33,774 nucleotides of DNA from Gemmatimonadota bacterium (GTDB taxonomy: Bacteria; Latescibacterota; UBA2968), in NCBI GenBank assembly GCA_028874765.1, contig JAPPIE010000185.1, positions 1-33,774 on the forward strand. The letters run 5' to 3'. Positions within the stretch are counted from its first letter, which is position 1. The number at the start of each line of letters is the position of its first letter. Position numbers and translations under genes: made by a program. Below are positions 17,470 through 30,372 of the stretch, in pieces. The notes beneath the pieces are model-generated. The model was not told the origin of the DNA and ran no database searches. It was given only the letters and a program-made list of their open reading frames with translations.

Positions 17470-18327
17470 TCAATGCATTTCGTGCGTCTCCAACCCGTGC
17501 ACCGCTCCGGACTCGATAAAATACAGCCCATACGCGAGAACAATACCCACGAGAAAGCACACCGTGAGCTTGACGCGATCGTGACTGTGAAAATGGATTT
17601 CCGGTAGCAGATCGCTCAGGGAAATACACAGAAACGCGCCGGCTGCCAGGACCAGCACATAACCGACCACCTCTTCCTCCCAGTGTCCCAAAAACCCAAT
17701 CCCCCAAAAAGTCAACAAAGCCACTACCGGACAGAGCATGGCGAATCCGATATTGACTGCTATACGAGTGCGGAGACTATGGCCTGCGGCCTGCAACAAA
17801 CCGATAATGGAAAACGCGTCGAGTGGCTTGTGCAAAAGAATCGCAAGAAACACCCCGAGCCCCGCTAAACCGGCTTCGGCCCCATGTATTTCACCAACCC
17901 GGATACTGGTACCCAGAGCAATACCCTCGGTCATCGTATGCAACCCCAGCCCCAGACAAACACCGATCAACCTGCTCTCGGGACTGGCATGCTCATGCGC
18001 ATGATCGTGGTGAAAATCACCTGCTTCGTCGCCAAATTCGTGCTGATGAAAATGGAAGATACGCAACAACAACACCATCAGAATGATACCAAACATCATC
18101 AATCCCACGGCTTTTTCAACAGCGCCTGGCCCCGGAATCATCACCAGACCGTGCGGCAGGAGATGATACAGCGCGACGCCAAGTATGAAACCCGCAACAA
18201 AACTCATCACCATCTGGATGCGCGTATGCGTCATCGTAACGATTGTCGGCAAATATCCGCCGAGCAAAGACGCGGCAAGGATAGCGAGGGCGTATCCCAA
18301 CAAAAGTATGAGAAAATGAGAATCCAC
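17470..18327 (-). CDS. ZIP family divalent metal transporter, 285 aa
   Basis: ZIP proteins move Zn, Fe or similar ions towards the cytoplasm. Eight hydrophobic segments are visible. The metal-binding helices are His130-xxx-Glu134 in GLHTMTEGIALG and His166-Lys-xx-Asp170 in LLHKPLDAF, as in ZIP helices IV and V. The loop between helices III and IV is His-rich (about 92-113: FHFHQHEF and FHHDHAHEH), and the C-terminus ends HGLETHEMH. Translation starts at GTG 18327 with no clear ribosome binding site, so expression may be low or regulated. It is the last gene before the terminator at 17414-17447, and 96 bases separate it from the preceding membrane protein gene. Confidence 0.93.
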   Translation of the reverse strand: MDSHFLILLLGYALAILAASLLGGYLPTIVTMTHTRIQMVMSFVAGFILGVALYHLLPHGLVMIPGPGAVEKAVGLMMFGIILMVLLLRIFHFHQHEFGDEAGDFHHDHAHEHASPESRLIGVCLGLGLHTMTEGIALGTSIRVGEIHGAEAGLAGLGVFLAILLHKPLDAFSIIGLLQAAGHSLRTRIAVNIGFAMLCPVVALLTFWGIGFLGHWEEEVVGYVLVLAAGAFLCISLSDLLPEIHFHSHDRVKLTVCFLVGIVLAYGLYFIESGAVHGLETHEMH

Positions 18328-18423: not shown

Positions 18424-18915
18424 TTAGAAGAAAATGATCAACAGAATAATACTGCTCAATCCACCGAGCAGAAATCCCACAGCACTGACAACACCGGACG
18501 CCGTAGCGTAATTGGCCAGGCGAAAGGTCTGTTCTTCAACCGTAAACATCACCTGTGTTCGATCGATCTCGCCATCGACAAACCGTTTCAATGCAGTCTC
18601 CGCACCGTGAGCCTCCTTTACCGAGACTACGGCGACCATAATCATAGCCACGGCTGATGCAAGCGTTCCCACCGCAAACATGAGCAGTGTCAGCAAGGAA
18701 GCATAGTGATAGGCGGGATCTTCACCTCCCGTGGTAGATGCACTCATGAAACCGATAATCAACGCGGCACCACCTGCATTGCCAAACAACAACAGGCGTG
18801 CTGTCTCGGTAATCATCCTGAACATGGTACCGCGCCGCAAAGCAACAACCTTATAAAGCTCGCGCAACCACTCTTCGCCGATTTCTTCGACGGAAAATTC
18901 GTCTATATTCTTCAA
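18424..18915 (-). CDS. Uncharacterised membrane protein in the metal/SPFH operon, 163 aa
   Basis: I do not recognise the family. The N-terminal 35 residues are acidic and amphipathic (VEEIGEEWLRELYKVV). Hydrophobic segments follow at about 40-58, 70-95 and 137-162, with a charged loop at 98-128. It lacks His/Cys clusters, so a direct metal-binding role is not suggested. The start is TTG at 18915; GGGAG lies 8 bases upstream, inside the end of the binding-protein gene, and the gap to that gene is 3 bases, so the two are translated together. Confidence 0.65.
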   Translation of the reverse strand: MKNIDEFSVEEIGEEWLRELYKVVALRRGTMFRMITETARLLLFGNAGGAALIIGFMSASTTGGEDPAYHYASLLTLLMFAVGTLASAVAMIMVAVVSVKEAHGAETALKRFVDGEIDRTQVMFTVEEQTFRLANYATASGVVSAVGFLLGGLSSIILLIIFF

Positions 18916-18918
18916 GGA

Positions 18919-20088
18919 TTATTCTCCCTTTGCAGAATGACCGCCACCCAGATGGATCAACCTGATATAGCTTGAACCCGCATTCTGACCGGATTTGAAA
19001 TGAATGACCCAATCGCCAATCACGACAGGCTTAGCCGGTGACATGCCATCTTTCATGAACCGCTCTCGCGTCAACTTATCGCTCATACGCTCCAACACAG
19101 CGATGAGATATCGACCCAATATATACCCCTCCAGACATACTTCATTGAATTCGTGCGCGTGGTCTTCCGGCACTAATCTTATGGCTTGTTGAAACTGTCG
19201 CACGACATGACTGTTCTGGTCTTGCGCGTCGGGCATCACCTCGGTCACCAGGATTTTATCACTCAGTGTATTGATCCTCTTCTTCAATTCGCGGGATAAG
19301 ACAAATGACAGGTTGGCTATTATGTATTTATGTCCCAGAGAATTGGCCAGATTGATGATTTCCGAATTGGCGGCATAGGCTCCCACTATCAGGATAGCGT
19401 CCAGATCGGCTTTATCCAATGCGAACAGGCTCGCATGGACGGCATGTGTATTCCGCGAGTAGGAGGTCTTCGCCAGTAAGGGAAGGTCGCGACTATCGAG
19501 AACCTCCTTGTAGTTTCTCAAGACGGAACGCCCGAACGCATCATCCTGATATATAATGCCGAAACGACTTTTGCCGAGATCGTCAATCATGTGATGCACC
19601 AGTTCATAGATCTCGTCAAAGTAACCGGCCCTCAGATTGATAATATTTGGATACTTTTTGGCATCGCGCAAAAAGTCGGCTCCTGTAAACGGTCCCACAA
19701 AGGGAATCTGAGCCGTTCGCAGCACGGGTACAATGCGCTTGGCAGTCGGCGTTCCCACGCCGCCAATGACGGCAAACACATTGTTTTTGGAAGCGAACAT
19801 CTCTGCATTTGCGGCTGCCAGATCAGGCTCGTACGCATCATCTACAGAAATGAGCCGCAACAACCTGCCATATACCCCGCCTTGATCGTTCTGTTCCTGA
19901 AAAGCGGTCAAAATACCGGCTCGATACCACAAACCCAGATTTTTGTTCGGACCCGAGAAGCAGGCGGTTTGCCCGAACACAATCGTACTGTCAGTAACTC
20001 CCGGAGCCGCCGCAGAGGGCAGGGTGAGCACCAGCAGGATGAGACAAGAAGCTATACCCGTCGATATGGACTTATTGAGCAGACTCAC
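18919..20088 (-). CDS. Periplasmic binding protein, family 6 (ABC branched-chain amino acid/urea receptor type), 389 aa
   Basis: A signal peptide (SISTGIASCLILLVLTLPSAAA) is followed by TIVFGQTACFSGPNKNLG, the family-6 start. Repeated segments are typical: SVDDAYEPDLAAANAE, VIGGVGTPTAKRIVP, PFVGPFTGADFLR, FGIIYQDDAFGRS. The fold binds small ligands between two lobes. No ABC permease or ATPase gene accompanies it here. I chose GTG at 20088 with GGAG 7 bases upstream; the coding region overlaps the end of the HflK-like gene by 17 bases, and the following gene starts 3 bases after its stop. It may serve as a receptor or ligand sensor for the SPFH complex rather than as a nutrient binding protein; that is inference. 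Confidence 0.85.
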   Translation of the reverse strand: MSLLNKSISTGIASCLILLVLTLPSAAAPGVTDSTIVFGQTACFSGPNKNLGLWYRAGILTAFQEQNDQGGVYGRLLRLISVDDAYEPDLAAANAEMFASKNNVFAVIGGVGTPTAKRIVPVLRTAQIPFVGPFTGADFLRDAKKYPNIINLRAGYFDEIYELVHHMIDDLGKSRFGIIYQDDAFGRSVLRNYKEVLDSRDLPLLAKTSYSRNTHAVHASLFALDKADLDAILIVGAYAANSEIINLANSLGHKYIIANLSFVLSRELKKRINTLSDKILVTEVMPDAQDQNSHVVRQFQQAIRLVPEDHAHEFNEVCLEGYILGRYLIAVLERMSDKLTRERFMKDGMSPAKPVVIGDWVIHFKSGQNAGSSYIRLIHLGGGHSAKGE

Positions 20089-21391
20089 TTTTTTTCTCCT
20101 TATCCACGGTTTTGCTGCTATCCTGCATGCTTGCAGCTTTGGTCTCAATCAACGCCTGCTGGTCTGCCTGCCGCACGGTAGTCTGCGGATGCGTTGACGT
20201 GTGCTCATGAGAGAATACACTGGGCAGGTCGAATATCAGTGACTTCATATTGGCGACCCTCTGATGATGGCGTTCCACGCGCCGTTTGTGGAATTGCCCG
20301 TCCAGCAAGTGTTTATCCTCATCGACATTTTCAAAAGCATGTGTATCCTGCTGCCGCGCCGTTGAAAAAGAGGGTCTATCGGCAACATCGCCTGAAGGCG
20401 TGCCCAGCAACAGGTCTGGAGGTGTAGAAGCTGCAAGCCCTTCTATCATGTTGATGTCGATTGTCGCCTCATTGCGGGGATTGACCGCCGACAAACTCGC
20501 TTCTGAGAAGATCGTGCGCATGCGCTGCCAATACCGCGTAATAGCCACTTGCGTTCGTTGACTTTTGTACTCGGCGAGCAGAGCGAGGAATGCGTCGGCA
20601 CTGCTTTGAGCCTGCACAATGCGTTCTCGCGCCCTGGCATGGGCGTCCATCACCACGGCCTCCGCCTGCCCCCTGCTGTGCGCGAGCATCTTCTCCCGCG
20701 TGCGGTTGGCATTGCTCTCTGCTTGTGCACGCTCGGCAATCGCATCATTGACATCCCGGAATGCAGCAATCGTTTCTGCAATCGGACTTATGTCAACGAT
20801 GTTGAGAGAGACAACCTCTATGCCGACGTCATATTCTTCGAGAAGGCCGGTAATCTCGTGCAACAGGTGGTGTTGAATGATGTTGCGATTGGAAGTCAGG
20901 ATCAAATCAATGAAATTCTGCCCCATGATATTGATCAACTCTTCCCGCAAGAGCATGGAAGTCACCTCAAGAGGATCGACAGATGCGTACAGAAAATTTC
21001 TCAGATTATCTATCCGGTATTGAAGGGCGATATCCACCTCAAACAGGTTCGTGTCCCCGGACAATATTGTAAAATTGGCTGTGCCGCCGCTCTTACTGGC
21101 TATCTGATGCTGGACGATCCGCTTGACCTTGCGAATCTGAATTTCGTCGATAATGGGGATGCAGTAGCGTATCCCGGGACCGATGTTCATACTGACCACC
21201 TTGCCGAAACGCAGAACCACGGCCTCTTCCTCTTTCTTTACGATATAAAACCCGCTACCCAACACCACAGCGACGACAATCGCGGCGAGCACGGTGACAA
21301 TTCGCCTTTTGGGATACTGCCCAACGAAATCAAAGGCGGCATAGATCATGCGCGTACTGCGTGGTAATGGTTGTTGTTCATTCATCGTCAT
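20072..21391 (-). CDS. HflK-like SPFH/Band 7 membrane protein, 439 aa
   Basis: A single transmembrane helix lies at about residues 31-51, followed by the SPFH/Band 7 domain (about 52-225) with GPGIRYCIPIIDEI and the VVSLNIVDISPIAETIAAFRDV segment seen in HflK. A coiled-coil region rich in Ala, Glu and Arg follows (about 225-300). The last about 110 residues are a charged extension with no match that I recognise. HflK and HflC form a large inner-membrane assembly around the FtsH protease. The start ATG at 21391 follows the HflC-like gene after 9 bases, and its end overlaps the binding-protein gene by 17 bases, so these genes are translationally linked. No FtsH gene is in the window. Confidence 0.9.
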   Translation of the reverse strand: MTMNEQQPLPRSTRMIYAAFDFVGQYPKRRIVTVLAAIVVAVVLGSGFYIVKKEEEAVVLRFGKVVSMNIGPGIRYCIPIIDEIQIRKVKRIVQHQIASKSGGTANFTILSGDTNLFEVDIALQYRIDNLRNFLYASVDPLEVTSMLLREELINIMGQNFIDLILTSNRNIIQHHLLHEITGLLEEYDVGIEVVSLNIVDISPIAETIAAFRDVNDAIAERAQAESNANRTREKMLAHSRGQAEAVVMDAHARARERIVQAQSSADAFLALLAEYKSQRTQVAITRYWQRMRTIFSEASLSAVNPRNEATIDINMIEGLAASTPPDLLLGTPSGDVADRPSFSTARQQDTHAFENVDEDKHLLDGQFHKRRVERHHQRVANMKSLIFDLPSVFSHEHTSTHPQTTVRQADQQALIETKAASMQDSSKTVDKEKKSESAQ

Positions 21392-21400
21392 AGCCCCATC

Positions 21401-22288
21401 TTACCTGGGTATAGATTTGCTGTCCAGATATTTGAATAATTCACTGTCTGCGGGCAGCATGAGCGTCGTGTTTTTATCGATAATCAGATCGTAGCTGTCG
21501 AGTGCGCGAATAAACTTGTAGAACTCCGGATCTTCCCGATAGGCTTTGCCCAGCACTGCCATTGCCTGGGCCTCGGCATTGCCGAGAATAGTCGTCGCTT
21601 CTGCGTGGGCCTCGGCCATAATTTTTTCGTGCTCGTTGATGGCGAGAGCCTCGATGGTTATCGCCTTCTCTTCTCCCTCGCTGCGATAGCGGGTGGCAAT
21701 GCGCGCACGCTCAGAAATCATTCGCTGGATCACGCTCGGCCGGTTCTCCACTGGCAAAGTGTATTCGACGATACCGACCCGTATCACCTCAATCCCATAG
21801 TTGGCTTTGGCAATCGGCGCGATCCTGTTGTGCATTTCGCGACACGCCTCATGCAAGTCTTCGTGTTCCAGCCCCAGACTGATGAACGCATCGCGTGCCC
21901 TATTGCTGATGACAATACCGCTACTCGCAAAATAGAGTTCCCGCAAACGTTCAACGGCATTTACATCCGTTCGGATGGCTTCGACATACTTGATGGGATC
22001 ACTGATACGCCACATCGTATAACCGTCAACCAGGACATTCTTCTGGTCTTCCGTAATCAACTCGTGGGTAAGGCCGTTGAGGGTCTGGATGCGTCGCTCA
22101 ACCTTGTATATCTTCGATATTGGCCACGGCCATTTGACATGCAGCCCGGGTTCTTTGACGGGCGGCGAGATTTTGCCAAAGTTGGTCAACACGCCTTGTT
22201 GCGTTTCATGGATAGTGTAAAAACAGCTATACGCGATTACACCAACAAAAACCACGACAATAGCTGTGACGATTCTTTTAAAAGTCAT
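21401..22288 (-). CDS. HflC-like SPFH/Band 7 membrane protein, 295 aa
   Basis: The N-terminal helix at about residues 5-24 is followed by ETQQGVLTNFGKI and EPGLHVKWPWPISKIYKVERR, which is the HflC-type SPFH start. The DGYTMWRISDPIKYVEAI segment and the coiled-coil EGEEKAITIEALAINEHEKIMAEAHAEA complete the pattern, with RALDSYDLIIDKNTTLML near the end as in HflC. The length is close to the usual HflC length. It sits 15 bases after the fusion gene stop and 9 bases before the HflK-like gene. In well-known operons hflK precedes hflC; here an HflK-like domain fused to a permease comes first, then HflC, then a free HflK. Confidence 0.93.
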   Translation of the reverse strand: MTFKRIVTAIVVVFVGVIAYSCFYTIHETQQGVLTNFGKISPPVKEPGLHVKWPWPISKIYKVERRIQTLNGLTHELITEDQKNVLVDGYTMWRISDPIKYVEAIRTDVNAVERLRELYFASSGIVISNRARDAFISLGLEHEDLHEACREMHNRIAPIAKANYGIEVIRVGIVEYTLPVENRPSVIQRMISERARIATRYRSEGEEKAITIEALAINEHEKIMAEAHAEATTILGNAEAQAMAVLGKAYREDPEFYKFIRALDSYDLIIDKNTTLMLPADSELFKYLDSKSIPR

Positions 22289-22303: not shown

Positions 22304-24637
22304 TCAGTGCTGGGCATTCGCGTTTGTCTTCGCCGACTTATTCTTCCACAGCGCGACCTTTTCGAGGCTCCGCTTATTGGGAACGATAATCTTGGCATTG
22401 CCAGAAAGCGCGGTTTCCAGCTTCTCTCGCCACAGCATAGTCTGGAGAACATTGGGCGCGCGCTTCACTGCTACAGCCACGACTCTTATCGCATCTGCTT
22501 CAGCGGCAGAAGTGATCACTTTCCTGATCGCTTCGCCGCTTGCCTGCTCCACTTCGTAAATCGCATTCCCATGTGCACGGGGAACTAATGACGTCAGAAA
22601 ACGCTGGGCATTGATGATGATCCGCTCTCGATCCTCCTGAGAACTCGAGATTTCCCGGAAAGCACTCATTGTTTCCGCCACCGGGTTAATACTCACCAGA
22701 TTTACATCGATCAGTTCAACGCTCTCGAACACAGGGCGCGACGCCTCGACGGTACCCGCAAACAATTCTCTGATATGCTCCTCCAGAGTTGCGCGGTGAA
22801 CACTGAGCAGATGATCCAGATTGCGGGCAGATACAAACTCGCGCAGATGATCCTTGATGGCATCTTTAATAATCAGTCTCGGATTCTGGATCTGATAATG
22901 ATAAGTATAGGGATCCTTTACGCGGTACTGCGCATTGATGGTAAGCGCGAGGAGATTCAAATCGCCCGAAATCAATTCGTACGGATTCGCGTTTGTAATA
23001 TACTTCACTTCTTTCACCGGCCATTTATCCACCTGCACAAAGGGACGGGGCGCGAGATAGTGCAATCCCGGCTGCAGGTCTCGCCAGTAAACCGCGCCGA
23101 ACAGACGTCCATAGCCCACATGCCCGGGAGGAATCACTGTAAAACCGCTACCGATAAACAGGGCGATCAGCAGACCGTAAAACGTCATTCCCAATGGCGT
23201 GGAGGGAGCGATAATACCCACAAAAGAACGGTTGCGCGTCACGCGTCCCCAGAACGCTTTACACGGTTCGACCACAGGGCGAATATTGAGCAACAGGTCT
23301 TCATAGCCGCTCTTAAAAGCACCTGCGCGGAACCGCCAGATGATCAGAGCGATCAGGGCAAAAGCACTCACCCATTGTATGAGTTGAATAGTCGTTGACT
23401 CCGAGGGACCGAGATACAGGGGAACCGTCACGCCGATGCCGAGCAGTATAACATCGATTACAATACCCAGAGCAACGGTAACAGCAATCACCGATGACAC
23501 ATAGATGGATGCAAAGCGCGCCCCGAACTGGCTGACGATAATCGCAATAGTACCCGTATTAGTCGCTGGCCCGGTCATAAGAAAAATCATCGCCGCTCCG
23601 GGACTAAATCCCTTGGCGACCAGCGCGGCAGCTATCGGAGTACTCGCAGACGCGCATATATAGAGCGGAACGCCAACCAGCACCATAACGGGATACGACA
23701 ACCAGCGCGCATACTCATTTGACATCAAATCGCTCGGAATCGCCAGATAGAGCACGCCTCCCAGTGCGACACCCACGAGTAGCGCAAACAAAATATCATC
23801 CGCTATTTCCACAAAGCCGTAGCGGAAAATATGCCTGACGATCTCCTTAAAATCCAGATCGTGTTTATATTTGGACGGATCATCCTCAGAAGTTTGTTTG
23901 TCTTCAGCCGGAAGCATGTCGCGATAAAAGTCCGGTTTCACCCATGATCCGAATTTGTGCTGGCTAACCGCTTCGGTAAGCCCCTTCAACCAGGAATAAA
24001 ACAACGCCTTCAACTGTGAGGGACTGACATAGCAATCATCGCTCCCGGGCACCAGAGGTTCGTGCCCATGATCGTGGTCGTGATCATGGCCGTGACTATG
24101 ACCGTGCCCATGGTCGTGATCATGGTCATGATCGTGGTCATGATCGTGATCGTGCTCTCTCGCCCTGGCCTCGTCGCTATCATCTCGTATGAGACCGATG
24201 CAAAAAATACCGGCGACAACTGCGGTAATAAAGCTAATGAAGGGCCTGACAATAGCAGCGATGAATCCAAAAAACGCATTCGTGACCAGAATCGAGTCCG
24301 CACCTGTTTCCGGCGCCGTAATCAAAAAAGACATACAGGACGAACGGGATGCGCCCTTATTGCGCATCTCGGCAACTACTGGTACAACCGAACAACTGCA
24401 AAGCGGCACGGGCACGCCAACAGCAGCACTCGTACTCACGGATTTCAGGCTATCTTCGCGCAACCACCGCAGAATGGCCTCACGCGAGATAAATACGTGA
24501 ATCAGACCAGAAAGAAATAGCCCCAGCATTAGCATAGGCGCTAACAACAGGAACGACATCACCAGAAAATCGAAGAAACTGGTCACTGCCTGTATTAAGC
24601 CAATACTTGTATTAATTGGAGCATCAATAGCCCTCAC
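22304..24637 (-). CDS. Fusion: SO_0444/ArsP-type metal-efflux permease with His-rich loop, joined to a C-terminal SPFH (HflK-like) domain, 777 aa
   Basis: Residues 1-435 match the DUF318/ArsP permease superfamily in its SO_0444 Cu/Zn-efflux form. The VPLCSCSVVPV motif (Cys80, Cys82) lies in the first half, and TAPETGADSI (107-115) and YICASASTP...MTGPATNTGTI (327-363) mark the two helical halves. Between them a hydrophilic loop at 162-192 is nearly all His/Asp/Gly. A further helix at about 482-500 leads into an SPFH domain (about 500-777) with PPGHVGYGRLFG, LQPGLHYLAPRP, PVAETMSAFREI and SLVPRAHGNAIYEVEQA. No stop or frame change separates the halves. The start codon is uncertain: GTG at 24637 has AGGAG directly before it, and ATT at 24628 is better spaced but rare. 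The HflC- and HflK-like genes follow after 15 and 9 bases. Confidence 0.88.
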   Translation of the reverse strand: MRAIDAPINTSIGLIQAVTSFFDFLVMSFLLLAPMLMLGLFLSGLIHVFISREAILRWLREDSLKSVSTSAAVGVPVPLCSCSVVPVVAEMRNKGASRSSCMSFLITAPETGADSILVTNAFFGFIAAIVRPFISFITAVVAGIFCIGLIRDDSDEARAREHDHDHDHDHDHDHDHGHGHSHGHDHDHDHGHEPLVPGSDDCYVSPSQLKALFYSWLKGLTEAVSQHKFGSWVKPDFYRDMLPAEDKQTSEDDPSKYKHDLDFKEIVRHIFRYGFVEIADDILFALLVGVALGGVLYLAIPSDLMSNEYARWLSYPVMVLVGVPLYICASASTPIAAALVAKGFSPGAAMIFLMTGPATNTGTIAIIVSQFGARFASIYVSSVIAVTVALGIVIDVILLGIGVTVPLYLGPSESTTIQLIQWVSAFALIALIIWRFRAGAFKSGYEDLLLNIRPVVEPCKAFWGRVTRNRSFVGIIAPSTPLGMTFYGLLIALFIGSGFTVIPPGHVGYGRLFGAVYWRDLQPGLHYLAPRPFVQVDKWPVKEVKYITNANPYELISGDLNLLALTINAQYRVKDPYTYHYQIQNPRLIIKDAIKDHLREFVSARNLDHLLSVHRATLEEHIRELFAGTVEASRPVFESVELIDVNLVSINPVAETMSAFREISSSQEDRERIIINAQRFLTSLVPRAHGNAIYEVEQASGEAIRKVITSAAEADAIRVVAVAVKRAPNVLQTMLWREKLETALSGNAKIIVPNKRSLEKVALWKNKSAKTNANAQH
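24062..24154 (-). repeat. His/Asp codon repeat in the permease loop
   Basis: An array of CATGAC/CACGAT-like hexamers encodes (His-Asp)n followed by His-Gly and more His-Asp pairs, residues 162-192 of the fusion protein. Codons alternate between synonyms, so the array is not perfectly identical at DNA level. It is a probable metal-binding loop and a likely place for length change by slippage. Confidence 0.9.
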
Positions 24638-24816: not shown

Positions 24817-27800
24817 TTACTGCCGTCGCGTCTCAATCCACTCGTAGATCACTGGCAGCAACACGAGTGTCAACAAGGTCGAAGTGATCAAACCGCCGAC
24901 CACCACCGAAGCGAGTGGCCGCTGCGTTTCGGCACCAACACCCGTCGCCAATAACAAAGGCACCAACCCGAGAATGGACGTACTCGCAGTCATCAAAACT
25001 GGGCGCAAACGCAACTCCGCTCCCCGTCGCACTGCCTCTGCGACACCGAGTCCTTTTTCGCGCAACTCATTGATAAAACTCACCAGCACAATGCCATTCA
25101 ACATCGCCACGCCAAAAACCGCAATAAATCCAATCGCAGAGGGAACCGACACGTATTGCCCACTGAAGAAAAGAACCACCATCCCTCCAATTGTCGCAAA
25201 CGGCACATTGGCGATAATCAGCGCGGCGTACTTCACCGAATTAAATGCGGTATAGAGCAACACAAAAATAAAAAAAATCGTCAACGGCACGATCACCGCC
25301 AAACGCGCCAACGCCCGCTGTTGATTCTCGAACGCGCCACCCCACTCGATCCAATAGCCCGGAGGCAAGTCAATCTGTGCATCAATAGCCGCATTGGCAT
25401 CGCGCACAAAACCATCGACATCGCGCCCTCGCACATCCATCTGGATCACTGCGTAACGCTGCAATTGCTCGCGGCGCACAAAAGAGTAGCCTTCCGCAAC
25501 GCTGACATCTGCAACAGTCGCGAGAGGAACAATCGCACCATCGCTTGTTTTCAATGGAATGCGCTGAATCGACTGCACCGACGCTTTTGATCGGTCATCG
25601 AATCGCGCCGTAATATCGAACCGGCGCACGCCGTCAATCATGGTCGTGACCGGCTCATTGCCGATGCCCGTGCGGACAACGGACAACACATCGTCCGCAT
25701 TCACCCCAAACCGGGCGAGTTGCTCGCGCTTGACCTGAATGCGGATCTGCGGCTTGCCGACATTGGCCTCAATCGAAAGATCCGCCACACCCTCAACTTC
25801 GGCAATGACATCTTTGACATCCTCGCTCAACTGATCGAGCACTGCCAGATCCTCACCGTAAATCTTGGCGGCAAGCGTGGCGCGAACCCCCGAGATCAGC
25901 TCCTCTACGCGCATCTGAATTGGCTGTGTAAAAGCGATAACAGCCGACGGCACCACCACTTCCAACGCCTCGCGCATAGCCTCGGCAAGCTCTTTGATAT
26001 CGCGGTCTCCGGGCCATTCGCTCTCGGGCTTGAGTGCCGTATAAATCTCCATATAATTGGCGTCGGCTGTTTCGCCTTTCTCGGCACGACCGATCATTGC
26101 CACCGTAGTTTCAACTTCCGGGAATCTCGACAGCGCATTCTCGATCTTCTTGGAAATCTCAATCGAATGCTGGAGCGAAGCCGAAGGTATCGAAGTCACG
26201 CGCCACATAATTGACCCTTCCTGCAATTGTGGCATGAACTCTTTTCCCAGAAAAGGGAACAGCGACATACTCACAGCGAGCAAACCCACGGCACAGCCAA
26301 CCACCACTTTTCGATTCGCCAACGACCAGGAAAGCAAGGATAGATAGCGCGGTTTAATGACGCGTACGAGCCATGTCTCGCGTTCTCTTTGCGGTTTCAA
26401 TAACAAAGCCGCGAGCACGGGAATCAGCGTCAGCGCGAGCAATAAACTTCCACCCATGGCAAACGTGATATTAAACGCCATCGGCTTGAACAGCTTGCCC
26501 TCCAGTCCCTCGAGCGCAAACAAAGGCAGAAATACCACCACAATAATCAAGATGGCAAAGGTCATCGGATTCACGACTTCACGGGCAGCAGCCAATACCG
26601 CAGCAGTGCGGTTGACCTCTTGGTTTTCTGCCCTGCGTTCTGCCATAACGCGAAATGAGTTCTCCACGACGACCACTGCGCCATCGACAATCATGCCAAT
26701 ACCAATAGCGAGGCCAGCAAGTGACATGAGATTAGCCGAAAGGCCCGCTTCATCCATGAACACAAACGCAATGAGCATCGTGAGCGGAATAGAGACAATC
26801 ACAACCACTGCTGGTCGCCATTCGCCGAGAAACAAAAACAGAATAACACCCACCAGAATCGCGCCTTGAAATAATGCATTCGTAGCCGTACCCACTGCCT
26901 TTTCAACGAGGTCGGTACGCTCGTAAATAGGTCGCAAAACAACGCCATCTGGCAGAGACTGATCGATAATAGCGACCTTTTCCTTCGTCGCTTCAACCAC
27001 CCGGGCGGCATTCTCACCGATGCGCGAGAGCACCATCCCGAGGACGACTTCCTTGCCATCGCGCGTCACGGCACCAAAACGGAGTGCACCCCCCTGACGA
27101 ATTTCGGCAATATCGCGCAAATATACCGGCGCGCCACCTTCGACTTTGACGACCATATCGCCGATATCGCGCTCATTTCTGACCAGGCCCAGGCCGCGCA
27201 CGAGGTATTGCTCTGAGCCGAGATTAACGTATTGACCGCCAACCTGGCGGTTGTTGGCCTCGATCACTTCCATGACATCGGTGAAGGTCAGGTCGTATTT
27301 GATGAGATTCAGGGGATCCATCACAACCTGAAATTGTCGTTCCTGGCCCCCCCATGAAATGACATCATCAACACCGGAAGCAGTTCGCAAAATCAAACGC
27401 ACATTCCAGTCGTGCAACGTCCGCAAGTCCATATCGGTAATCGCCGCATTGAGCTTTTCGTCAGCCCGTTCCAGTGTGTACCAGAAAACCTGACCGAGTC
27501 CGGACGAGTTGGGACCCATCTCCGGCGTGCCATAACCTTCTGGGATGCGCTCCCCCACCTCCTGCAACCGCTCCATCACCAGACGCCGCGCAAAGTAAAT
27601 ATCCATGTCGTCTTCAAAATAGACCGCGACATAGGACAAACCGAAGAGACTCACAGAGCGGATCTCTTTCACCTTCGGCAGCCCGGCCATGCCGGACTCA
27701 ATAGGAAAAGTGAGAAGTTGCTCCACATCCTCAGCGGCAAGCCCTGGTGACTCGGTATAGATATTGACTTGGGTGGGCGTCACATCTGGAAACGCATCAA

Positions 27801-27906
27801 TCGGCACAGTAACAACCGCACGCCAACCCAAAAAGGCCACGATTCCAAAGGCAATCAACACCAGAAATTTATAGCGCAGAGATGTCTTTACCAGTGCTTC
27901 CAACAT
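24817..27906 (-). CDS. czcA: Heavy-metal efflux RND pump, CzcA/CusA family, 1029 aa
   Basis: This is the inner-membrane, proton-driven pump of a CBA metal exporter. The start MLEALVKTSLRYKFLVL, VPIDAFPDVTPTQVNIYTESPG, and the TM4 motif ending IVDGAVVVVENSF are diagnostic for the heavy-metal RND group, and the length is normal. In TM4 Asp408, Gly409, Ala410, Glu415 and Asn416 are present, while position 402 is Gly; in the cobalt-zinc-cadmium pump CzcA that position is Asp. This argues against a strict CzcA-like selectivity and leaves the metal undetermined; CusA-type copper/silver transport is not shown either. The start at 27906 has AGGAG 6 bases upstream, and the adaptor gene stops 9 bases before it. 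The symbol is given for the family, not for proven substrates. Confidence 0.93.
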   Translation of the reverse strand: MLEALVKTSLRYKFLVLIAFGIVAFLGWRAVVTVPIDAFPDVTPTQVNIYTESPGLAAEDVEQLLTFPIESGMAGLPKVKEIRSVSLFGLSYVAVYFEDDMDIYFARRLVMERLQEVGERIPEGYGTPEMGPNSSGLGQVFWYTLERADEKLNAAITDMDLRTLHDWNVRLILRTASGVDDVISWGGQERQFQVVMDPLNLIKYDLTFTDVMEVIEANNRQVGGQYVNLGSEQYLVRGLGLVRNERDIGDMVVKVEGGAPVYLRDIAEIRQGGALRFGAVTRDGKEVVLGMVLSRIGENAARVVEATKEKVAIIDQSLPDGVVLRPIYERTDLVEKAVGTATNALFQGAILVGVILFLFLGEWRPAVVVIVSIPLTMLIAFVFMDEAGLSANLMSLAGLAIGIGMIVDGAVVVVENSFRVMAERRAENQEVNRTAAVLAAAREVVNPMTFAILIIVVVFLPLFALEGLEGKLFKPMAFNITFAMGGSLLLALTLIPVLAALLLKPQRERETWLVRVIKPRYLSLLSWSLANRKVVVGCAVGLLAVSMSLFPFLGKEFMPQLQEGSIMWRVTSIPSASLQHSIEISKKIENALSRFPEVETTVAMIGRAEKGETADANYMEIYTALKPESEWPGDRDIKELAEAMREALEVVVPSAVIAFTQPIQMRVEELISGVRATLAAKIYGEDLAVLDQLSEDVKDVIAEVEGVADLSIEANVGKPQIRIQVKREQLARFGVNADDVLSVVRTGIGNEPVTTMIDGVRRFDITARFDDRSKASVQSIQRIPLKTSDGAIVPLATVADVSVAEGYSFVRREQLQRYAVIQMDVRGRDVDGFVRDANAAIDAQIDLPPGYWIEWGGAFENQQRALARLAVIVPLTIFFIFVLLYTAFNSVKYAALIIANVPFATIGGMVVLFFSGQYVSVPSAIGFIAVFGVAMLNGIVLVSFINELREKGLGVAEAVRRGAELRLRPVLMTASTSILGLVPLLLATGVGAETQRPLASVVVGGLITSTLLTLVLLPVIYEWIETRRQ

Positions 27907-27915
27907 GCAGTTCTC

Positions 27916-29019
27916 CTAATGTACATGACCTGCGCCAAGCGAAGACTTGAGCATCAATGACTTGAGGTAAAAAACACCGCTCACGGCGATCTCGTCACCT
28001 GCAATAAGCCCGCTTCGAACGACCGTCCACTCGCCCACCGTGGAACCGACCTCAATAGCCTCGGCATGGAACTCGTGTCCTTCCTCGATCTTGAATACAT
28101 TCGGTGAGCCTTTGATCATTATCAATGCCGCACTCGGCACAGCGAGTTCTGGTGCGTGCGTCCCGGTGACCACCTCTACTTCGACAAACTGACCCGAATG
28201 CAAGCTATGAGCCGTGTTGGGCACCTCAATACGCAAGCCCTGTGTTCGGACCTTTTCGTCGAGGTGATGATGAAGTTGAATGACCGTACCTGGAAACCAG
28301 TTGATACCATCGGGGATGACCCGCACATTGGCACCAATATCGATTTTGGGGGACGCGGTCAGCACCATATATGCTTCCACCCACATCACCGATTCGTCAC
28401 TGATATTCATGAGTACCCGGCCAGGCTCGATCAATTCACCAACAATAAAATCGTCCTGTAGCACCGTACCCGCCTGTGAGGCGAGCAAGTCGAAGGTACC
28501 GGTCGCTTTGCTGGCGTCTCCCGATTGCATAAGTGCCTCTGCCTGAGCCATGGTCATGCCGTAAGCGAGTACTTTGGCGAGAGCCTGTTGTTGTGCAACC
28601 TGCGCTTCGGTATAGCGCTGTTCCGACACGGCTTGCTGACCGAGGGTCTTGACGCGTTGCCATTCTCGATTCTCGACAATCAATGCCCCTTGCGCCTCGG
28701 CCATCTCAACACTCGAGAGCGCCACCAGGGGTTGACCGACTTCGACCTCATCGCCGAGTTTCGCATGACGCGCCACGACCTGTGCTGTAATGCGCGGAGT
28801 AACGAGCACAGACTGGTAGGCATTGATCACAACCTCGCCCGGAATCCGCAGGGTCTCGTTGAGCGCGCGAGGTTCAACCGTACCAATAACAATGCCCGCC
28901 GCGCGTTGTTCTTCTGCACTTAGCTCAATTGAGGTACCCTCATGGTCCGCCTCCTCTGCGTATATCGGTTGGATCAGTGTCAAACACAGACACACCGCCC
29001 AAAATTTCAACATCGTCAT
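27916..29019 (-). CDS. czcB: RND periplasmic adaptor, CzcB/CusB (HlyD) family, 367 aa
   Basis: The adaptor links the pump to the outer-membrane channel. A signal peptide (MTMLKFWAVCLCLTLIQPIYA) is followed by the mature chain: barrel-sandwich segments around TLRIPGEVV and RHAKLGDEVEVGQPLVAL, a helical hairpin with AQVAQQQALAKVLAYG, then GTVLQDDFIVGELIEPGRVLMNI and a C-terminal barrel. It ends GAGHVH, a small possible metal-binding tail. I chose ATG at 29019, with GGAGG 5 bases upstream; an ATG at 29058 overlaps the czcC stop as ATGA but would add 13 residues before the signal peptide. It follows the czcC-like gene and precedes the pump gene. Confidence 0.9.
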   Translation of the reverse strand: MTMLKFWAVCLCLTLIQPIYAEEADHEGTSIELSAEEQRAAGIVIGTVEPRALNETLRIPGEVVINAYQSVLVTPRITAQVVARHAKLGDEVEVGQPLVALSSVEMAEAQGALIVENREWQRVKTLGQQAVSEQRYTEAQVAQQQALAKVLAYGMTMAQAEALMQSGDASKATGTFDLLASQAGTVLQDDFIVGELIEPGRVLMNISDESVMWVEAYMVLTASPKIDIGANVRVIPDGINWFPGTVIQLHHHLDEKVRTQGLRIEVPNTAHSLHSGQFVEVEVVTGTHAPELAVPSAALIMIKGSPNVFKIEEGHEFHAEAIEVGSTVGEWTVVRSGLIAGDEIAVSGVFYLKSLMLKSSLGAGHVH

Positions 29020-29054
29020 CAGGGCCTCCAATGCGGTTCTTTGTGTGTTGTAAT

Positions 29055-30314
29055 TCATCGACTTGCCAGACCGAGCCAGGCCTCCACCTGCCCCGCTGCG
29101 AGAATCCACTCGAACCAGGCCTGCCATACCTGACCGTGCAAATCAAGCGCACTTTCTCGCACCTGTATCGTCTGCTCCAGTTGCGCCAAATAGTCGGCCG
29201 TACTGAGATCCCCGGCCTGCCAGAGGCGGCGCAATTGCTCACTTTGTCGGTCCAGGCTCTTTCGCCCTGTATGTTCCCACTCATCCCAAGCAAAGCGCGA
29301 TAACCCGTAGCGCTCTGCCGCACTGATCAGGGAAGCGTGTGCCATCTGCACCGCATCATCGGCGAGTTGTTGCGCCTGGACGCGCTCTGCCATAGCCGCG
29401 GTAACTTCATGTGTAAAGCGGTTCCGGATCGGAAACGGAATGGACAGACCCAAACCGATCAACCTTTTGCCATCTTCGTACCCACCAGTGAAACTCAGGG
29501 TTGGATCTGGGCGACGTTCGCGTCGTTGTAATCCCACCACAGCATCGGCCGCGTTAACCCGGTGCCGCGCGGCCACAACCCCGGGTAATGCCTGCACCAG
29601 AGCCTGCGAATCAGCACTTTGCTCAATTACCTCCGGTAGTTTCTCGGGAAGAGAGGGCCACTGCGCCTCGGGTATGCGCGGGCCAAGGCTGTACACCGCT
29701 TGCCGCGCCTCGGCCAGATCCGCGGCCACCATCGCTTTTTGAATGCGCACCTCGGTAAGGGAAAGGAGAGCCTGATCAAGTGCCACCTGGTCTAATTCGC
29801 CAGCCTCAAACTGGCGCTGCGCCAATGTCGCAAACTCCTCCATCAACTGCTGGCGCATCTGGGCCAGGCGATCGCGTGCAACGCCAGTCTGGTATTGCAC
29901 GAGGCCATTGAGCAAATCTACCGCAACCGTCCATCGGGCATCCAGATACTCCGCCTCGGCAACGAGCCGGTCCAACTCCGCCACTGCGGTACGCGCCTTG
30001 CGTTTGCCGCCCCAGTCCAGTGTCTGACTAATCGATAGTGTGCGTATCCTGGCCTGTGCATTCTCAGCATCCAACGACAATTCGGGATTGTAGAGGGGAC
30101 GCGACGCGGCATCCCTAAACGCACTGCTCGCTTCTAAACCCGCGCGTGCCGCCTGCACGCGGTAATTGGAATCGACAACAGCTTGCACAAAACGCGTTAA
30201 AGCGACACTGGCCCGGGCATTTCCCAGCACCCTTGTCTCGGCAACCAGTGTCGTCCATGACATCACTATCAAGCCACACAATACGAAGGCGTATCGATAA
30301 CATAATTTTGGCAT
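29055..30314 (-). CDS. czcC: Outer-membrane efflux channel, CzcC/TolC family, 419 aa
   Basis: The protein has a signal peptide (about residues 1-25 ending TTLVAE) and two helical repeats of TolC type, with RPLYNPELSLDAENAQARIRT in the first and RRPDPTLSFTGGYEDGKRLIGLGLSIPFP in the second. The latter, with the IPFPIRNRF segment, is typical of heavy-metal channel proteins of the CzcC kind. It forms the outer-membrane part of the exporter. The start is ATG at 30314, with AGGAGG 7 bases upstream; an in-frame TTG one codon earlier is rejected. It is the first gene of the operon, and its promoter lies about 60 bases before the start. Confidence 0.9.
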   Translation of the reverse strand: MPKLCYRYAFVLCGLIVMSWTTLVAETRVLGNARASVALTRFVQAVVDSNYRVQAARAGLEASSAFRDAASRPLYNPELSLDAENAQARIRTLSISQTLDWGGKRKARTAVAELDRLVAEAEYLDARWTVAVDLLNGLVQYQTGVARDRLAQMRQQLMEEFATLAQRQFEAGELDQVALDQALLSLTEVRIQKAMVAADLAEARQAVYSLGPRIPEAQWPSLPEKLPEVIEQSADSQALVQALPGVVAARHRVNAADAVVGLQRRERRPDPTLSFTGGYEDGKRLIGLGLSIPFPIRNRFTHEVTAAMAERVQAQQLADDAVQMAHASLISAAERYGLSRFAWDEWEHTGRKSLDRQSEQLRRLWQAGDLSTADYLAQLEQTIQVRESALDLHGQVWQAWFEWILAAGQVEAWLGLASR

Positions 30315-30372
30315 CAATCATCCTCCTGATGGTGACAATCAAAATCCCCTGTGAATCAAAATTAATCTGAAA

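What the first reader, a model, noticed from the sequence alone, without database searches (positions are those of the whole stretch)
22304..24637. Metal-efflux permease fused in one reading frame to an SPFH (HflK-like) domain
The 777-residue protein joins an SO_0444/ArsP-like permease (CSC motif at 80-82, His-rich loop at 162-192) to a membrane helix and a full SPFH domain from about residue 500. SPFH proteins build large rings or cages in the membrane; in the HflK/HflC case the cage encloses FtsH. A covalent fusion would put a metal permease inside or at the wall of such a cage. I know of no described system of this kind. The SPFH half retains the PVAETMSAF and PRAHGNA segments of the HflK group, so it is not a decayed remnant.
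Basis: partly seen in the sequence, partly recalled or inferred. Interest (0 to 1): 0.85.

Follow-up and report, generated by a model that had tools for sequence, protein, structure and literature searches.

The report
Metal permease fused to cage protein
A group of uncultured bacteria has joined a zinc/copper-transporting membrane protein to a building block of the large protein cages that sit in membranes, always together with the same four partner genes, which suggests a dedicated caged metal-transport machine that has not been described before.

Summary
The fusion is real. It is a 777-aa frame on the MINUS strand (24637..22304): an SO_0444-type Cu/Zn permease (ArsP_1) joined by a basic linker and one helix to an HflK-like SPFH domain. 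It is not a sequencing error: the same unsplit frame occurs in all 18 genomes of two phyla where the gene is complete, including a 6.5-Mb single-contig genome, and the SPFH half is under purifying selection. The fusion never travels alone. It heads a five-gene cassette: FUS, HflC2, HflK2, a LivJ-type periplasmic binding protein and an orphan membrane protein (P163). Seven related genomes carry the permease alone, without the cassette partners. The permease tree shows one fusion and one later loss. Zinc genes recur around it: CzcCBA and ZIP here, zur/znuC/znuA in the second phylum. On a plasmid I found a second metal-transporter–SPFH fusion (CDF) with the same gene order; P. aeruginosa has a known, Zur-regulated, unfused analogue (PA2439-PA2435/HmtA). 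Best reading: an HflK/C-type periplasmic cage that holds a metal permease by covalent tether. Cage formation, metal and direction are inferred, not shown; AlphaFold2 failed on the fusion.

The parts
22304..24637 (-). FUS: fused SO_0444-type permease and HflK-like SPFH protein, 777 aa
   Evidence: open frame, Pfam/NCBIfam, 17 complete unsplit relatives
23339..24580 (-). permease half, residues 20-433, with C80-S-C82 (24392-24400) and His-rich loop 162-192 (24062-24154)
   Evidence: ArsP_1 20-395; SO_0444 29-433; invariant cysteines in the alignment
23207..23338 (-). linker, residues 434-477, charge +8/-3, predicted cytoplasmic
   Evidence: charge count; conserved in frame in all relatives
22604..23206 (-). 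membrane helix (about 478-497) and SPFH domain (501-678)
   Evidence: hydropathy, Band_7, profile match to E. coli HflK 85-347 in solved cages
21401..22288 (-). HflC2, HflC-type SPFH protein, 295 aa, 15 bp after FUS
   Evidence: hflC 181 bits, cut-off 134; HflC half of the tree; always next to FUS
20072..21391 (-). HflK2, HflK-type SPFH protein, 439 aa
   Evidence: hflK 146 bits, below cut-off 159; HflK half of the tree
18919..20148 (-). SBP: LivJ-type periplasmic binding protein with an N-terminal hydrophobic segment; start overlaps the end of HflK2
   Evidence: Peripla_BP_6 142.7 bits; nearest solved relatives 4kv7, 3lop
18424..18915 (-). P163: orphan membrane protein, 163 aa, marker of the cassette
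   Evidence: no credible Pfam, NCBIfam or PDB relative; 15 of 64 genomes, none of the permease-alone genomes
17470..18327 (-). ZIP-family metal transporter, flanking gene present with and without the cassette
   Evidence: Pfam Zip 76.9 bits; synteny
24817..30317 (-). CzcA, CzcB and CzcC-like RND metal efflux genes upstream; wholly or partly lost in the two genomes that lost the cassette

Best explanation
FUS, HflC2 and HflK2 build a hetero-oligomeric HflK/C-type cage on the periplasmic face of the inner membrane. FUS takes some of the K positions, HflK2 the rest, HflC2 the alternating C positions. Because the cytoplasmic N-terminus of an HflK-type subunit is replaced by a whole Cu/Zn permease, each FUS subunit brings one permease to the cage, which encloses or fences the transporter. 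The permease moves zinc (or copper) from the cytoplasm into the cage-bounded periplasmic pocket, where its onward path can be controlled, for instance towards CzcCBA and away from re-uptake by ZIP or ZnuABC. SBP and P163 are accessory parts: a periplasmic ligand sensor or lid, and a membrane partner. Shown: the fusion, the cassette, its conservation, its single origin, joint loss of the SPFH half with the partner genes, and the zinc-gene neighbourhood. Inferred: topology, cage formation, stoichiometry, metal, direction, roles of SBP and P163.
For: Permease half over the SO_0444 cut-off, a family whose Shewanella member is needed under Zn and Cu stress (PMC3219624). SPFH half aligns with HflK 85-347 of solved cages and is under purifying selection. 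FUS tail and HflK2 are K-type, HflC2 is C-type, 100/100, so both subunit types of a K/C ring are encoded side by side in addition to the canonical hflK-hflC pair. Cassette order invariant in two phyla; one fusion and one joint loss. Basic linker puts the SPFH domain in the periplasm. Zinc context: CzcCBA and ZIP, ZnuA, ZnuC and a Zur-like regulator in the second phylum. Parallel CDF-SPFH fusion with the same order. Zur-regulated SPFH plus HmtA locus in P. aeruginosa. A stomatin cage encloses AQP1 and UT-B.
Against: No structural model: AlphaFold2 of the fusion gave pLDDT 34. FUS and HflK2 are below the hflK equivalog cut-off. Import genes (ZIP, ZnuA) and export genes (Czc) both adjoin, so direction is unclear. 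No Zur-like site was found before FUS. All copies are in metagenome-assembled genomes; nothing has been expressed.
Confidence: 0.55

Rival explanations
1. The trio is an HflK/C-like regulator of the FtsH protease. The fusion places the permease as a resident sensor or substrate, so that metal status controls FtsH turnover of membrane proteins, including metal transporters.
For: HflK/C cages enclose FtsH in E. coli (PMC12048511), and the three SPFH proteins are of K and C type.
Against: Canonical hflK and hflC exist elsewhere in the genome; no protease gene is in the cassette; the cassette sits among metal transporters. FtsH-contact residues were not tested.
Confidence: 0.2
2. The SPFH half only anchors and clusters the permease in a membrane microdomain (a raft-like scaffold), without an enclosing cage or a gated pocket.
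For: SPFH proteins are widely described as microdomain scaffolds (for example PMC8656257, PMC6788730).
Against: A periplasmic binding protein and an orphan membrane protein always accompany the trio, and the presence of both K and C types fits a closed ring better than a loose scaffold.
Confidence: 0.17
3. The two halves are joined by chance or for co-expression only and work apart, perhaps after cleavage in the linker.
For: The linker is the fastest-changing part of the protein.
Against: Never split in 18 complete copies; the SPFH half disappears together with its partner genes in G001/G007 while the permease stays.
Confidence: 0.06
4. Assembly or frameshift artefact joining two genes.
For: The window's own genome is a 474-contig assembly.
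Against: Independent assemblies of 17 further genomes, one of them a single 6.5-Mb contig, have the same unsplit frame.
Confidence: 0.01

Closest known systems
P. aeruginosa PA2434-PA2439 locus (PaFlo5-7 with HmtA, Zn/Cu P-type ATPase importer)
   Same: Several HflK/HflC-type SPFH proteins in one operon beside an inner-membrane metal transporter; zinc-regulated, promoter bound by Zur (PMC4542158, PMC8531726, PMC11761036, PMC13086221).
   Different: The transporter is a separate P-type ATPase, an importer; no SO_0444 permease fusion is described there, nor the LivJ-type SBP or P163.
CDF-SPFH protein with HflC, HflK and P-type ATPase on an Aquibium oceanicum plasmid (found here, annotated only as hflK)
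   Same: Metal-transporter domain fused N-terminally to a K-type SPFH domain, followed by HflC and HflK.
   Different: Transporter is a CDF domain, not SO_0444; PPIase and P-type ATPase follow in place of SBP and P163; a common origin is not resolved by the tree.
E. coli HflK/HflC cage around FtsH
   Same: K and C subunit types, single N-terminal membrane helix, predicted periplasmic SPFH domain; profile match to solved HflK.
   Different: Here one K-type subunit carries a permease, a second K-type subunit exists, and the genes sit with metal transporters, apart from the canonical pair.
SO_0444 family Cu/Zn efflux transporter
   Same: The permease half scores over the family cut-off and keeps the CSC motif.
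   Different: Members seen elsewhere stand alone, for example in Aureibacter and G001/G007; here a C-terminal SPFH domain is added.
Human stomatin dome enclosing AQP1 or UT-B (PMC12407830)
   Same: An SPFH ring around a membrane transporter.
   Different: Non-covalent, one SPFH protein, cytoplasmic side, water and urea rather than metal.

Membership tests
SO_0444 Cu/Zn efflux transporter (NF033936) | Score over the curated equivalog cut-off | tested here: met
   322.2 bits against 300
SO_0444 Cu/Zn efflux transporter (NF033936) | Zn/Cu tolerance phenotype | not testable with these tools
   Known only for Shewanella SO_0444 (PMC3219624)
HflK (TIGR01933) | FUS tail and HflK2 score over the equivalog cut-off | tested here: not met
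   123.2 and 146 bits against 159.4; both lie in the HflK half of the tree, so HflK-like, not filed as HflK
HflC (TIGR01932) | HflC2 scores over the equivalog cut-off | tested here: met
   181.4 bits against 134.4
HflK/C cage | Formation of an alternating K/C ring in the periplasm | not testable with these tools
   Monomer prediction failed; no multimer tool
HflK/C cage | Association with FtsH | not tested
   No protease gene in the cassette
PA2439-PA2435/HmtA-type locus | Several SPFH genes of K and C type in one transcription unit | tested here: met
   K'-C-K order, gaps 15 and 9 bp
PA2439-PA2435/HmtA-type locus | P-type metal ATPase encoded in the operon | tested here: not met
   No P-type ATPase in the cassette; SO_0444 permease fused instead
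PA2439-PA2435/HmtA-type locus | Control by Zur | tested here: inconclusive
   Zur-like palindrome before znuA in the second phylum but none before FUS; simple pattern scan only

The most novel reading that the evidence does not exclude
SPFH cages have repeatedly been turned into covalent transporter compartments in bacteria: a metal transporter (SO_0444 permease, CDF, perhaps others) is fused to the first member of a K-C-K SPFH trio, so that metal crosses the inner membrane only into a cage-bounded periplasmic pocket served by its own binding protein. This would be a new kind of envelope machine, a caged metal exporter.
Probability: 0.35. Interest if true: 0.9.

Novelty: new variant of a known kind. 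Interest (0 to 1): 0.72.

Why it matters
What bacterial SPFH cages are for beyond FtsH is an open question. A covalent fusion states the cargo in the gene itself, so it gives a direct test of the idea that SPFH rings are membrane compartments for transporters. It also links a zinc-regulated SPFH locus of P. aeruginosa, whose SPFH proteins have no known role, to a wider pattern of SPFH trios with metal transporters, and it defines a cassette with an orphan membrane protein that can serve as a genomic marker.

Tried and rejected
(1) Artefact or frameshift: rejected by the complete unsplit relatives. (2) AlphaFold2 of the fusion with an 18-row alignment: mean pLDDT 34, not used. P163: pLDDT 65, three long helices, too weak for a fold search. 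(3) Permease-like frames of 616-689 aa in related genomes looked like further fusions; the two examined are ArsP_1 behind a ZIP-like half, not SPFH. (4) An SPFH with a 545-aa frame in G011 is canonical hflK-hflC with a frame that merely runs on upstream. (5) Zur site in front of FUS: not found. (6) P163 in other groups: 1 of 400 Chloroflexota-phylum genomes sampled (4.2-kb contig, mis-binning not excluded; none of its 60 sampled relatives), 0 of 395 in the class of an Acidimicrobiales genome, 0 of 313 in the phylum of G065 and of G066 (the two searches shared genomes). (7) Paper searches for a described permease-SPFH or CDF-SPFH fusion gave none; only open-licence papers are held, so this is weak evidence of absence. 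(8) Plasmid hflKC pairs beside nhaA or other antiporters are only a loose parallel. (9) The SPFH tree does not resolve whether the trios share one origin; two FUS rows from the second phylum were cut slightly off register in that script, without effect on their grouping.

Full report
Observation. The 777-aa frame lies on the minus strand, 24637..22304. It holds an ArsP_1/SO_0444 permease (residues 20-433) and an SPFH domain (501-678) with its own membrane helix at about 478-497. The junction (residues 434-477) maps to window 23207-23338.

Not an artefact. In the window's phylum the same frame is complete and unsplit in 14 genomes of three families (own genome included), and in four more of a second, small phylum. 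One is a single 6.5-Mb contig, OX638329.1, titled as an uncultured Latescibacteria genome. Within the genus dN/dS is about 0.05-0.08 for the permease, 0.12-0.16 for the SPFH half and 0.12-0.29 for the linker.

The unit is a cassette. In every locus with enough flanking DNA the fusion is followed by HflC2, HflK2, a LivJ-type binding protein and P163, in that order and on that strand. P163 has no credible relative in Pfam, NCBIfam or the PDB. It occurs in 15 of 64 genomes of the phylum and 5 of 18 of the second phylum, plus one short contig of a Chloroflexota-phylum genome that also carries SBP, HflK2 and ZIP but ends before the fusion. Seven related genomes (G001, G007, G009, G037, G040, G042, G046) have the permease alone, about 405-420 aa where complete, near ZIP, with no cassette partner beside it and no P163 in the genome. 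The standalone permeases also lack the SWVKPxFYR insert of the fused ones.

History. A tree of the permease half needs two changes of state: one fusion and one later loss. G001 and G007, in the window's own genus, nest among the fused forms and have lost the SPFH half of FUS and all four partners in one stretch, with CzcA and CzcB also gone (one-clade test for all fused rows p = 0.022). That the SPFH half of one gene leaves with four other genes argues that these parts work together.

Subunit types. In an SPFH tree the FUS tail and HflK2 fall with HflK, HflC2 with HflC, 100/100. Only HflC2 passes its NCBIfam cut-off; FUS and HflK2 are HflK-like but below it. The genome also carries canonical hflK and hflC elsewhere, so this trio is additional. 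The FUS profile aligns with E. coli HflK 85-347, a chain of solved cages. The linker carries +8/-3 charges; by the positive-inside rule (established knowledge) it is cytoplasmic and the SPFH domain periplasmic, as in HflK. In effect the cytoplasmic N-terminus of an HflK-like protein has been replaced by a permease.

Metal. The permease scores over the SO_0444 cut-off; the Shewanella member is needed under Zn and Cu stress (PMC3219624), and a Nitratiruptor member is induced by Cd and Cu (PMC10092412). In the window CzcCBA-like genes lie upstream and ZIP downstream; a CDF and a second CzcAB set lie upstream in G041/G044. In the second phylum ZnuA directly precedes FUS in L109 and L110, with ZnuC and, in L109, a Zur-like regulator close by, and a Zur-like palindrome in front of znuA. 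Zinc is therefore the most likely metal. Direction is not settled, since both import and export genes adjoin.

Parallels. On an Aquibium plasmid a protein annotated only as HflK is a CDF domain fused to an HflK-type SPFH domain, followed by HflC, HflK, a PPIase and a P-type ATPase. Klebsiella, Burkholderia and Rhizobium plasmids carry a long K-type protein (568-672 aa, about five hydrophobic segments before the SPFH helix), then C, K and a P-type ATPase. P. aeruginosa PA2439-PA2435 is the known example: HflK/HflC-type genes with the Zn/Cu importer HmtA, zinc-regulated; three SPFH proteins are reported there in one operon (that PaFlo5-7 are PA2439-PA2437 is my reading of the two numbering systems). 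A stomatin dome enclosing AQP1 or UT-B shows that an SPFH ring can hold a transporter.

Interpretation. The most economical reading is a K/C-type cage with a covalently held metal permease (confidence 0.55). Fusion, cassette, conservation and joint loss are shown. Topology, cage, stoichiometry, metal, direction and the roles of SBP and P163 are inferred. I file it as a new variant of a known kind (SPFH cages; SPFH-metal transporter loci). If a closed cage around the fused permease were shown, a covalently caged transporter would come close to a new kind.

Noticed in passing
L125 5367-6914 (NZ_CP018172.1 16552-18099): A plasmid protein annotated as HflK is a CDF cation-efflux domain fused to an HflK-type SPFH domain, followed by HflC, HflK, PPIase, P-type ATPase, PCu(A)C and SCO genes: an apparently separate metal-transporter-SPFH fusion.
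   Followed up: partly
L126 5118-6824, L127 4868-6763, L128 4818-6836: First SPFH gene of K-C-K plus P-type ATPase operons has a long N-terminal region with about five hydrophobic segments and no Pfam family; it may be another fused membrane domain.
   Followed up: partly
L027 280-2217, L031 1234-3135: In another family of the same class an ArsP_1 permease is fused behind a ZIP-like half (633-645 aa; Zip match below Pfam cut-off); ZIP and permease are neighbouring genes in the window.
   Followed up: partly
window 24062-24154; L064 9586-11970: The His/Asp-rich loop of the permease varies greatly in length between close relatives, as an HD dipeptide repeat; it is longest in L064.
   Followed up: no
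L050 (Vibrio plasmid), L049 (Methylophaga plasmid): Accessory hflK-hflC pairs on plasmids sit directly before nhaA or cation:proton antiporter genes, another pairing of K/C-type SPFH proteins with ion transporters.
   Followed up: no
L035 12590-13906: HflK2 is interrupted by a stop codon in this one genome (G064) although the rest of the cassette is intact; other genomes of the group have it whole.
   Followed up: no
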